The notes under the pieces: model-generated
What the model saw: the letters and a program-made list of their open reading frames with translations, nothing else
What the model was told of the DNA's origin: nothing
The model's database searches: none
Assembly (NCBI RefSeq): GCF_001922585.1
Contig: NZ_MRBS01000007.1
Coordinates: 1-64,000, forward strand
DNA: 64,000 bases
Source of the DNA: Pantoea sp. 1.19
Lineage (GTDB): Bacteria > Pseudomonadota > Gammaproteobacteria > Enterobacterales > Enterobacteriaceae
Reading direction: 5' to 3'
Shown here: positions 12,610-64,000 of the stretch, in pieces
Layout: each line of letters opens with the position of its first letter
Position numbering within the stretch: the first letter of the stretch is position 1
Position numbers and translations under genes: made by a program

Positions 12610-13635
12610 TCATTTATAGCTAACGGTAAAATTGACTTTGGCATTGGCGCGGCCAGCTTGCGGACTGTCCGCCGTTTTAATGTAGCGCGCATAAAAGTTC
12701 AGTACCGTTTCGCCGCGCGTGATGGCACCCGCCGGCGTGGCGGTACCGAGCGGAAAGGCCGTAACGCCATCCTCCCGCAAGATCTGAACTCCCACGCCCT
12801 TCGCCGTAGAGGTGCTGTCCAGGCCTGTGATGCCGTTGACGGCGTCGACTATCGTCGAGCCATTGACGGGCGTGAAGGTGACATTGACGATATTGTTCAG
12901 GCTGCTACCGGTTGCGCAATTGGTCAATGGAATTTGAAAGCGCTGCGGTTTACTCGTCGGGTGAAGGGTGCTGATGGAGACATTCCCCATCGGGACCGAG
13001 GTGACCGCGCCGGCGTTCGCTACCGTACAACTCTCTGCGGTCAGCGTGATGGAGAAGTCTGAGGTCAGAAAGGTGTTGTTCAGCGTGGTCAGCGACGACT
13101 TTCCCTTCACCACGTGCGTACCCGGCTCAATGTCACCGATTTTCACCAGCAGGACGCCGAGGGTAGGCGTATAAGTGTAGCTACCAGCAGGAACCTGCTG
13201 ATTAAGCGGGAAAAAAAGGGAGTCTTTAATGTTACCGAACGTTTTTATTCGCGTTAAGACGCCCACACCGGGGATGTTAGTCGGAAAGACCCTGCCGGCC
13301 GATGTGGGATAGCCGTTAGCGACCACATCCACCGGAGCGGCGGCTGAGGTATTGATGGCCGTAACGATAATCGGATTAGAGTAACAGTATAAGTAGGCGT
13401 AGCCACTCCAGTTAATATACAGCGTTTTTTCATCGCCAATAATGCTGCCGATGGGGGCCGATCGCGCCACGCTGATACCGCTGAATGTTCCACTGACATT
13501 GATCGTATCATCGTAGATATTCCACGCCGTAGACCACATGCAGGTATGTGATGGCTGTACGACCGTGTTGGCAGAGCGTGCATGCACTGAAAAAAAACAG
13601 AGTAGCAGGAACATTAATAATGATGCTGATTTCAT
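12610..13635 (-). CDS. orphan fimbrial tip adhesin (intact paralogue)
   Basis: 341 residues with a signal peptide (MKSASLLMFLLLCFFSVHA), an N-terminal region of about 170 residues with cysteines that is probably the receptor-binding domain, and a C-terminal pilin domain from about residue 205. The pilin part runs from LTAESCTV to the typical ending VNFTVSYK, used for donor-strand exchange. The C-terminal half, and the segment around TNIPGVGVL, closely resemble the broken adhesin at 16105-17150. No chaperone or usher gene adjoins it, so assembly would rely on the nearby operon. It is separated from that operon by the oppositely oriented yjbB. The ligand is unknown. Confidence 0.8.
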   Translation of the reverse strand: MKSASLLMFLLLCFFSVHARSANTVVQPSHTCMWSTAWNIYDDTINVSGTFSGISVARSAPIGSIIGDEKTLYINWSGYAYLYCYSNPIIVTAINTSAAAPVDVVANGYPTSAGRVFPTNIPGVGVLTRIKTFGNIKDSLFFPLNQQVPAGSYTYTPTLGVLLVKIGDIEPGTHVVKGKSSLTTLNNTFLTSDFSITLTAESCTVANAGAVTSVPMGNVSISTLHPTSKPQRFQIPLTNCATGSSLNNIVNVTFTPVNGSTIVDAVNGITGLDSTSTAKGVGVQILREDGVTAFPLGTATPAGAITRGETVLNFYARYIKTADSPQAGRANAKVNFTVSYK

Positions 13636-16104: not shown

Positions 16105-17150
16105 TCATTTATAGCTTAGGGTAAAGTTTACCGCAGCGTTGGCGGAGCCGGAAAGCGTCACCGGCTGGGTTTGTACGTAGCGCGCCTGAAAATCCAGCGT
16201 CATCTCTCCCGGCCGCACCGGCGCCGCCGGCGTAAAAACCCCCAGTGGGACAGGCGTGCTGCCGTTTTCGCGTAAAATTTGGATGCCAATTCCCTGCGCG
16301 GTGGCACCATTTTTTAGCCCCAGAACGCCCTGTTCAGGCCCAACGCTGGCGGAGCCCGCCGCGCCGTCAAACTTAATGTTAACCATGTTGCTTAAGGCGC
16401 TACCGATCGCGCACTGGGTCAGTGGAATGTGGAAGGCGCTTAACGGGGCGCCGGTCACGCCGGGGGGACGGATGGCATCCCTGGCAACATGGCCCATGTT
16501 GACCGTTTTACTGCCGGCGTCGGCGGGGACAGTACAGCTGTCGGCCTGAACGGAAAAGGTCATCGAACCGCGCAAAAAAGTATAGCCCCCGGCGCTGAGC
16601 TCCATGGTGGTCGTCACCTGATGCGGCCCCGGTTCGACATCCCCCGTTTTAATCAGGAAGACGCCAAAGCCGTAATACTGCGGGGGGAGTGATGCACTCA
16701 TATTGGCGGCGTCAAACGTTGTCGGAAAAAAAACGCATCGTAGGCGCCCCCGCTCAGCTTAAATTTTACCAGTACGCCGATTCCGGGCACATTCGTGGAA
16801 TGGACCTTGCCGTCGCTATTGTCGACGCCCGGGACGCGAATATCGGGCAGCAGCGCACCGTTAGTAATACGGCTGATGATTTGGGCGGATTTTCCGCACG
16901 TCAGTCCCTCGTAACTGCCAAAATTTACCGGATCGGTGCGCGTTTCGGTTTCAATTACGGTTCCCGGCGTCCAGCTGCGGCGAATATCTTGCGCGCCGAG
17001 CGTTCGGGATGCCTGAAGGGTCGCATCACTGTAAGTTTTTATCCCCAGCCACCCCTTGGTGTAATACTGACATTTCGTGGCGGTGGGAGCGGCTCCGGCA
17101 GCCGAAGTAAAAAACAATAGCAGGAGAAAAATGGGTTTTATATTGATCAT
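16105..17150 (-). pseudogene. fimbrial tip adhesin with frameshift in a poly-T tract
   Basis: Last gene of the fimbrial operon; its start shares one base with the usher stop. The N-terminal frame (16698-17150) has signal peptide MINIKPIFLLLLFFTSAAGA and a receptor-like domain with KVHSTNVPGIGVLVKFK. It then shifts out of frame at eight T residues (A8 at 16726-16733 on the plus strand). One extra T restores FFFPTTFDAANMSASLPPQYYGFG and joins the C-terminal pilin domain (16105-16701), ending VNFTLSYK. The intact paralogue keeps LFFPLNQQ at this point. It may be a true null, a phase-variable gene or a sequencing error. Confidence 0.8.
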
Positions 17151-20507: not shown

Positions 20508-21059
20508 TTATTTATAGCTGATGATAAAGCCGACTTTGCCATCAGCCGAGCCCGCTTGCGCCTGGCCTAAAGCAACATATTGCGCCTGAAAGCTGAGTGG
20601 TTTTTCCAGACTGTACTCAGGGGAATCTTTGCCCATCAGCAATTCAGCGTTGTTACTGTCCAGCAGGCGAATGGCCACGTTCTTCGCTTCTTTGCCGCCG
20701 TCGGCTTTTAACTTAATATATTGCTGATTATCACCCGCCGTGCCGCTCATGGACGTAAAGCGAACGGAACCGGTCTTCCCCGTCAGATCACAGTTGCCGG
20801 CACCGCCCGAGGCGCTGTCGGTTACGGAAATCGTAAAGGTTGCCCCTCCCGCCGTATCATTTGCATTTTGCAGGCTGCTGGTTTGCACCGAGCCCATTTG
20901 AACGGTCTTATTATTGCCATTACCGTCCGTCACGGAAGCTGAACAGGTGCTGTCTTCGACGCTCCCCTCAAAGTTGATGGTGCCATCGATGGCCTGCGCG
21001 AAGATCGGCGTAAAGCTGATAACCGTGGTCAGGAAAAGGGCGATAAGCGATTTTTTCAT
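20508..21059 (-). CDS. major fimbrial subunit (pilin)
   Basis: 183 residues with signal peptide MKKSLIALFLTTVISFTPIFAQA and a mature pilin domain starting IDGTINFEGSV. The two conserved cysteines sit in EDSTCSASV and GNCDLTG, and the C-terminal beta-zipper ends KVGFIISYK. It is first in the operon order pilin, chaperone, usher, adhesin. A GGAAG ribosome site precedes the ATG. The pilin class (FimA-like) is clear but no serotype or named fimbria can be assigned. Confidence 0.92.
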   Translation of the reverse strand: MKKSLIALFLTTVISFTPIFAQAIDGTINFEGSVEDSTCSASVTDGNGNNKTVQMGSVQTSSLQNANDTAGGATFTISVTDSASGGAGNCDLTGKTGSVRFTSMSGTAGDNQQYIKLKADGGKEAKNVAIRLLDSNNAELLMGKDSPEYSLEKPLSFQAQYVALGQAQAGSADGKVGFIISYK

Positions 21060-63081: not shown

Positions 63082-64000
63082 ATGGCAAAAGATAAAAAAC
63101 GGGGCTTTTTTTCCTGGCTTGGCTTTGGCAAAGGGGATCAGCCAGAAAAGCAGGAAGTGAGCAAGGAAACGATAGCGCCGCCGGAAGAGGCGCAGGATGC
63201 CCCAGACGATGCCGCCACGCCCGCCGGACACCCCTCGCCTGCCGGGGAGCCCGCCGTTGCCCGCGACGCCGGGCAGACTGACGCCGCGCTGCCGCATCAG
63301 CCGGAGACGCAAGCCGACGCTGCGCCGGTGGCGCCGTCGGTACCCGAATTGAATCTGCCGCCAGAGCCAGAGCCAGAGCCAGAGCCCGCTCCGGCGCCAA
63401 CCCCGCAGCCGGAGCCCGTGCCAGAGTCCAGGCCGGCGCGCGCCCCTGAACCGACGCCAGAGCCCGTTCCGGCGCCAACGCCGCAGCCGGTCCCCGTGCC
63501 AGAGTCCAGGCCGGCGCGCGCGCCTGAACCGACGCCAGAGCCCGTTCCGGCGCCAATGCCGCAGCCGGTCCCCAAGCCAGAGCCCGTTCCGGCGCCAACC
63601 CTGCAGCCGGAGCCCGTGCCAGAGTCCAGGCCGGCGCGCCCCCCTGAACCGACGCCAGAGCCCGTTCCGGCGCCAATGCCGCAGCCGGTCCCCAAGCCAG
63701 AGCCCGTTCCGGCGCCAACCCTGCAGCCGGAGCCCGTGACAGAGTCCAGGCCGGCGCGCGCCCCTGAACCGACGCCAGAGCCCGTTCCAGCGGCAACGCC
63801 GCAACCGGAGCCCGTGCCAGAGCGAGAATCCGGGCAGGGACCGGCCCACGCTGCCGAAGCGGTAGCGCCGGCGCCGGTCACGCTGGCGGATCCCGCTCCG
63901 GAGCAGGAGGAGGTGGAAGCGGCGAGCGCCGATGACGCGCCGCCGGCGCGGGAGCAAACGCGCCCGACCAAAGAGGGGTTTTTCGCCCGTCTGAAGCGCA
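63082..64000 (+). CDS. ftsY: signal recognition particle receptor FtsY (N-terminal part; runs off the window)
   Basis: 306 residues are visible and the NG GTPase domain lies beyond the end. FtsY docks SRP-ribosome complexes at the inner membrane. It starts MAKDKKRGFFSWLGFGKG, the membrane-binding amphipathic opening. The acidic A domain follows, here extended by Pro/Glu/Val-rich repeats (about residues 94-250). The N-domain start TKEGFFARLKR appears at about residue 297-306, about 100 residues later than in E. coli. GAGGAG lies 12 bases before the ATG. Confidence 0.95.
   Translation, partial: MAKDKKRGFFSWLGFGKGDQPEKQEVSKETIAPPEEAQDAPDDAATPAGHPSPAGEPAVARDAGQTDAALPHQPETQADAAPVAPSVPELNLPPEPEPEPEPAPAPTPQPEPVPESRPARAPEPTPEPVPAPTPQPVPVPESRPARAPEPTPEPVPAPMPQPVPKPEPVPAPTLQPEPVPESRPARPPEPTPEPVPAPMPQPVPKPEPVPAPTLQPEPVTESRPARAPEPTPEPVPAATPQPEPVPERESGQGPAHAAEAVAPAPVTLADPAPEQEEVEAASADDAPPAREQTRPTKEGFFARLKR
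63361..63800 (+). repeat. in-frame tandem repeats in the ftsY A domain
   Basis: Two neighbouring 120-bp copies, 63541-63660 and 63661-63780, differ at only two bases. A 78-bp version of the same unit precedes them (63463-63540), with a diverged copy before that. Units are multiples of three and encode PEPVPAP..PQP.PV-type and ESRPAR.PEPT segments, so copy number can change without breaking the frame. Confidence 0.92.

What the first reader, a model, noticed from the sequence alone, without database searches (positions are those of the whole stretch)
16105..17150. Tip adhesin interrupted exactly at an 8-T homopolymer
The operon's adhesin is open in two halves that differ by one base at a T8 run. 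One added T rejoins them into a full two-domain adhesin whose joint aligns with the intact paralogue. Slippage at such tracts is a known way to switch surface proteins on and off, so this may be a phase-variable adhesin caught in the off state. A real null mutation or an assembly error would look the same.
Basis: partly seen in the sequence, partly recalled or inferred. Interest (0 to 1): 0.6.

Follow-up and report, generated by a model that had tools for sequence, protein, structure and literature searches.

The report
Fimbrial adhesin gene broken at T-run
The gene for the sticky tip of a bacterial surface fibre is split in two at a run of eight T's; this is most likely a recent slippage mutation, and nothing available shows that it is a built-in on/off switch.

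Summary
The last gene of a minus-strand pilin-chaperone-usher-adhesin operon is open in two frames overlapping by 58 bases, and a T8 run (16733-16726) lies in that overlap. Both halves match the intact paralogue at 12610-13635, changing frame at the run. The paralogue has a T7 run at the same place, in frame.

The switch reading is not shown. Such runs are ordinary here: 15 A/T runs of 8 or more in 243 kb of predicted coding sequence, against 9.9 (sd 2.3) in synonymous shuffles. The run encodes Phe residues both adhesins share. mutS and mutL frames are open. No orthologue or second isolate was found, so tract-length variation could not be tested. Two of nine usher loci of the sister genome are broken too, one in a frame overlap holding only a G6 run. 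The other 25 long coding runs surveyed show no break at the run, which argues against a poor assembly but not against one wrong base.

Best reading: a recent one-base slippage null. A phase switch, a sequencing error and recoding stay open.

The parts
20508..21059 (-). Fimbrial pilin subunit, 183 aa
   Evidence: PF00419, 51.9 bits
19671..20456 (-). Periplasmic fimbrial chaperone, 261 aa
   Evidence: PF00345 129.5 bits and PF02753 61.2 bits
17150..19648 (-). Outer-membrane usher, 832 aa, full length
   Evidence: PF00577, PF13954 and PF13953 all matched
16698..17150 (-). First half of the tip adhesin, 150 aa: N-terminal signal-peptide-like stretch (judged by eye) and most of the receptor-binding part
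   Evidence: 35 of 102 residues identical to the paralogue
16726..16733 (-). T8 run at which the reading frame changes
16698..16701 (-). ATGA: stop of the first half overlapping the first ATG of the second
16105..16701 (-). Second half of the tip adhesin, 198 aa: end of the N-terminal part and the pilin domain
   Evidence: PF00419 54.5 bits; C-half frame 92 of 214 identical to the paralogue
16660..16713 (-). Possible RNA stem-loop 11 nt downstream of the run (weak)
   Evidence: 71-nt fold z -1.79, 10 of 200 shuffles as good; other lengths z -0.22, -1.22, -0.16
12610..13635 (-). Intact orphan paralogue adhesin, 341 aa
   Evidence: PF00419 58.1 bits, PF22003 22.2 bits, below its cut-off of 27
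13211..13217 (-). T7 run of the paralogue at the homologous place, in frame
13590..13597 (-). T8 run near the start of the paralogue, in frame

Best explanation
This is the distal, two-domain tip adhesin of a four-gene chaperone-usher fimbrial operon. It carries a recent one-base length change, most likely from strand slippage at a T run that is there because neighbouring Phe residues are encoded. Shown: the two halves, the frame change at the run, the otherwise open operon, the intact paralogue. Inferred: the first half (exported, without a pilin domain) cannot be held by chaperone and usher, and the second half (pilin domain, no signal peptide) is not exported, so the fibre lacks this adhesin in the sequenced cells. 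It could revert at the ordinary rate of such a run, but there is no sign that the run was selected as a switch.
For: The frame change is bracketed to the T run by the paralogue. No further stop or second frame break is seen: each half is open and the pilin domain matches to its end, so the lesion looks young. A/T runs of 8 or more are ordinary in this genome. mutS and mutL frames are open, which argues for a low slippage rate. Gene loss occurs in this genome (malG remnant) and in usher genes of the sister genome, two of nine loci. Fimbrial pseudogenes by frameshift are common in host-restricted Salmonella (PMC3373541, passages), homopolymers are longer in Escherichia pseudogenes (PMC8928963, passages), and frameshifted genes without clustered homologues are mostly ascribed to errors or recent indels (PMC3711429, passages).
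Against: A switch in its off state would look the same. Of 27 pilin-domain ORFs scanned only the paralogue has an A/T run of 8 or more, and the interrupted gene has one too, which is mildly suggestive of a shared property. A single sequencing error would also look the same.
Confidence: 0.52

Rival explanations
1. Sequencing or assembly error: the gene is intact in the organism and one base was miscalled at the run.
For: A homopolymer is where many platforms err; the rest of both halves is open; the sequencing platform is unknown to me.
Against: No general problem: the ORFs holding the other 25 long coding runs go on for at least 46 bases past the run; 26 of 27 genes comparable with E. coli are in one frame, 21 of 21 with CwR94. 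The 20 runs scored as intergenic were not examined for broken genes.
Confidence: 0.2
2. Dedicated phase-variable adhesin: slippage at the run switches the tip adhesin on and off at high rate, and the genome was caught off.
For: Surface adhesin, break at the longest run of the gene, both halves conserved, in-frame runs in the sister adhesin. A poly(A) tract in Listeria inlA varies about 1000-fold above point mutation (PMC2831843, abstract).
Against: No variation data; run of ordinary length for this genome; open mutS and mutL; A/T runs of 8-10 in H. influenzae usually differ by substitution, not length (PMC2651432, passages); in wild-type P. aeruginosa accumulation lines only one indel fell in a homopolymer (PMC4702332, passages). 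The run is 417 bases into the gene, not near the 5' end where such runs gather.
Confidence: 0.18
3. Recoding: ribosomal -1 frameshifting or transcriptional slippage at the run makes some full-length adhesin from the gene as it is.
For: The first frame reads TTT TTT TTC, which holds a -1 slippery heptamer (recalled); a stem-loop of -18 kcal/mol starts 11 nt downstream.
Against: The stem is marginal: z -0.22, -1.79, -1.22 and -0.16 for the four stretches folded. No orthologue conserves the layout, and the paralogue is in frame without it. The run is one short of the nine at which slippage is usually counted (PMC1088944, abstract and passages), and a transcriptome study in E. [quoted passage not shown]
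Confidence: 0.07
4. Two separate genes joined by translational coupling at ATGA.
For: The stop and the next ATG overlap.
Against: The second product would begin inside the receptor-binding part and shows no signal peptide by eye; its frame stays homologous to the paralogue upstream of that ATG, up to the T run.
Confidence: 0.03

Closest known systems
Chaperone-usher fimbrial operons of the type 1 / long polar fimbria group
   Same: Pilin, chaperone, usher and distal two-domain adhesin; NCBIfam's best usher matches are LpfC (459 bits) and FimD-like models.
   Different: All usher matches are far below the curated cut-offs (1271 bits for LpfC); closest ushers in the genus are 35% identical or less.
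MrkD-type fimbrial tip adhesins (PF22003 with PF00419)
   Same: N-terminal receptor-binding part and C-terminal pilin domain.
   Different: Matches of 22.2 bits (paralogue) and 14.8 bits (first half) against a cut-off of 27; membership not claimed.
Frameshifted fimbrial pseudogenes of Salmonella (PMC3373541)
   Same: Otherwise undeleted fimbrial cluster with a gene lost by a frameshift.
   Different: Different fimbria and lineage; there pseudogenes were assessed over many strains, here one genome.
Homopolymer contingency genes, such as Listeria inlA (PMC2831843)
   Same: Surface protein interrupted at a homopolymer.
   Different: Variation of tract length was measured for inlA; here it is unknown, and the run is mid-gene rather than at the 5' end.

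Membership tests
Chaperone-usher fimbrial operon | Pilin, PapD-like chaperone, full-length usher, distal pilin-domain adhesin on one strand | tested here: met
MrkD-like receptor-binding domain | Score above Pfam's curated cut-off of 27 bits | tested here: not met
   22.2 and 14.8 bits
Homopolymer phase-variable (contingency) gene | Frame break at a simple repeat, rest of the gene open | tested here: met
   placement in the T run rather than the adjoining C run is inferred
Homopolymer phase-variable (contingency) gene | Tract longer or more frequent than expected, in such genes in particular | tested here: inconclusive
   15 observed, 9.9 (sd 2.3) expected in all coding sequence sampled; among pilin-domain ORFs only the two sister adhesins have one
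Homopolymer phase-variable (contingency) gene | Tract length varies within a culture or between isolates | not testable with these tools
   No reads, second isolate or orthologue found
Homopolymer phase-variable (contingency) gene | Reversible on/off phenotype | not testable with these tools
   Needs culture
Programmed -1 ribosomal frameshift gene | Slippery heptamer in the first frame | tested here: met
   TTT TTT TTC read in frame; the motif is recalled
Programmed -1 ribosomal frameshift gene | Downstream stimulatory structure beyond chance | tested here: inconclusive
   z -0.22, -1.79, -1.22, -0.16 for four stretches
Programmed -1 ribosomal frameshift gene | Layout conserved in relatives | not testable with these tools
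   No orthologue found; the paralogue is in one frame
Transcriptional-slippage gene (9A/9T type) | Run of nine or more A or T | tested here: not met
   Run of eight; criterion from PMC1088944, which notes that shorter runs may slip in some bacteria

The most novel reading that the evidence does not exclude
The gene is functional as written: slippage of ribosomes on U UUU UUC before a stem-loop makes a small share of full-length tip adhesin beside an excess of exported receptor-binding fragment, so that recoding sets the amount of tip.
Probability: 0.05. Interest if true: 0.65.

Novelty: new member of a known kind. Interest (0 to 1): 0.17.

Why it matters
If it were a switch, it would be a homopolymer-controlled tip adhesin in an enterobacterial chaperone-usher system, where the on/off control usually described is promoter inversion or methylation (recalled). 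As the evidence stands it is one more fimbrial gene interrupted by a frameshift, and a reminder that a break at a homopolymer is not by itself evidence of phase variation.

Tried and rejected
Orthologues from which to read tract length: none found. DNA in 60 genomes including the own; first half in 295 family genomes and 394 order genomes, own included and partly the same genomes; usher in genome contigs by six 8-residue patterns, which reaches close relatives only; plasmids by DNA and protein; E. coli genomes; viral contigs. The paralogue as query finds matches in 161 of 295 family genomes and 74 plasmid records, mostly over the pilin domain alone and at under 45% identity in the rows listed, too distant to bear on the run.

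Structure prediction of the paralogue with three rows was useless (mean pLDDT 31.6), so no fold search was made; solved structures match the paralogue's pilin domain only. Downstream RNA structure as proof of recoding: rejected as marginal. Systematic assembly error: not supported. Mutator state: not supported; mutS and mutL judged by domain match and open frame only.

Full report
What is there. The window is the first 64 kb of contig C39 of a 3.79 Mb, 41-contig genome, GC 59.5% in the window. CwR94 came from a strawberry leaf and was screened for aphid killing (PMC8966022, passages). On the minus strand, between yjbB and a symporter gene (both named from homology and by reading), lies a chaperone-usher operon: pilin 21059-20508, chaperone 20456-19671, usher 19648-17150 and the adhesin region 17150-16105. 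The adhesin region is open as 150 aa in one frame and 198 aa in another. The two frames overlap only from 16758 to 16701, and a T8 run at 16733-16726 lies in that overlap. The first ORF ends 28 bases past the run, stop included; its stop overlaps an ATG of the second frame as ATGA.

Where the frame changes. The intact orphan paralogue at 13635-12610 (341 aa) matches the first half up to ...DAFFF (35 of 102 identical) and the second frame from .FFP on (92 of 214). At the same codons the paralogue carries a T7 run in frame. A short C run follows the T run in both genes and differs between them, so the change in length cannot be placed with certainty in one or the other. I favour the T run because indel rates rise with run length, as measured in mismatch-repair-deficient lines (PMC4702332 and PMC5854121, passages). 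The break lies inside the N-terminal part, about 50 residues before the pilin domain, not at the domain joint.

Is the run special? In 306 kb of this genome (window plus 15 stretches, about 8% of it, chosen as neighbouring contig and other fimbrial loci, so not a random sample) there are 46 runs of 8 or more A or T, or 7 or more G or C. A simple codon-score gene set, uncurated, puts 26 of them inside genes, 15 of these A/T. A hundred synonymous shuffles within genes give 9.9 (sd 2.3) A/T runs, so such runs are somewhat in excess, across the sample. Nine of the 15 lie within 150 bases of a predicted start; the adhesin's is 417 bases in. TTT makes up 64% of Phe codons in the long ORFs. Of 27 pilin-domain ORFs scanned (28 matches, one outside the stretches), only the paralogue has an A/T run of 8 or more; the interrupted gene was scanned there in its second half only, and its T8 is. 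That the two sister adhesins alone carry such runs is mildly suggestive of a switch, but the run that broke sits on Phe codons that both share.

Is it an error? The ORFs holding the other 25 coding runs continue for at least 46 bases past the run; the 20 runs scored as intergenic were not examined for broken genes. Of 99 E. coli K-12 proteins compared with 184 kb of this contig, 35 matched; 8 with a best match under 50% identity were dropped, and 26 of the remaining 27 are in a single frame, one of them (ftsY) aligned over 63% of its length. The exception is malG: two frames, an apparent small in-frame loss, and no malF, malE or lamB match in the stretch, so a real remnant. CwR94 genes found in this genome: 21 of 21 in one frame; the reverse gave 21 of 22, the exception being a short, weakly matching ORF. 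There is no sign of a general homopolymer problem, but one wrong base cannot be excluded.

Is it a switch? Evidence from variation is missing. No orthologue was seen in 59 other genomes by DNA, 294 other family genomes or 393 other order genomes (three weak hits, E 0.001-0.009), nor in the plasmid, E. coli and viral collections; the closest other ushers of the genus are at most 35% identical. The operon looks acquired: in CwR94 yjbB and the symporter gene are 16 bases apart and metH and yjbB under 120, with neither operon nor paralogue between them; GC of the operon genes is 52.5-57.6% against 59.3-60.4% for metH, yjbB and the symporter gene. mutS and mutL frames are open. In H. influenzae, A/T runs of 8-10 usually differ between strains by substitution (PMC2651432, passages). 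On the other side, a poly(A) tract in Listeria inlA varies about 1000-fold above point mutation, and A/T runs gather at the 5' ends of genes (PMC2831843, abstract). In CwR94, ten usher matches fall on nine loci. One locus reads in two frames whose 79-base overlap holds a G6 run, though the aligned pieces do not pin the junction to it; another has an internal TAG. Six G's are, in my judgement, too short for a contingency tract. Fimbrial genes in this genus thus seem to be lost by ordinary mutation, as in host-restricted Salmonella (PMC3373541, passages). A survey of frame transitions asks for five or more related frameshifted genes before calling phase variation and ascribes lone cases mostly to errors or recent indels (PMC3711429, passages).

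Could it work as it stands? The first frame reads TTT TTT TTC, which holds a -1 slippery heptamer (recalled). A stem-loop begins 11 nt downstream; four stretches folded gave z of -0.22, -1.79, -1.22 and -0.16. [quoted passage not shown] I give recoding 7% in all, 5% for the programmed form.

Consequence, inferred from established chaperone-usher biology. The first product would enter the periplasm but lacks the pilin domain that chaperone and usher hold; the second lacks a signal peptide (judged by eye). The fibre would be made without this tip, or poorly, unless the paralogue replaces it.

Verdict. Observation confirmed. Odds: recent slippage null 0.52, sequencing error 0.20, dedicated switch 0.18, recoding 0.07, two coupled genes 0.03; these are judgements. 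Four literature searches (9 listings, 8 different papers) listed no paper whose title or abstract start announces a homopolymer-switched enterobacterial tip adhesin; of these I read passages of PMC2651432 and PMC3373541 only.

Noticed in passing
12610-13635: Orphan tip-adhesin paralogue directly downstream of metH on the opposite strand, with no chaperone or usher ORF seen next to it; it might serve the neighbouring operon.
   Followed up: partly
L089:10147-13620: In Enterobacteriaceae bacterium UBA2655 the same gap between yjbB and the symporter gene holds a 1157-aa ORF that reads like an autotransporter adhesin (by eye); the gap may be a hot spot for surface-protein genes.
   Followed up: no
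L061:9338-10194 (contig C39:73338-74194): malG remnant in two frames, without malF, malE or lamB matches in the stretch: real gene decay in this genome.
   Followed up: partly
L057:3366-3445 and L052: Two usher loci of the sister genome CwR94 are broken: one in two frames (overlap holds a G6 run), one by an internal TAG.
   Followed up: partly
L061:5474-7284 (contig C39:69474-71284): Pieces similar to E. coli yhhZ in three frames, best 49% identity over 211 residues; left out of the frame survey by the 50% cut.
   Followed up: no
63082-63999: The ftsY homologue starts with a long Pro/Glu-rich repeat (PEPTPEPVPAP-like); E. coli FtsY aligns only from residue 185.
   Followed up: no
306 kb sample (window, L061-L075): Nine of 15 coding A/T runs of 8 or more lie within 150 bases of a predicted start, in line with the 5' bias reported in PMC2831843 (abstract).
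   Followed up: no
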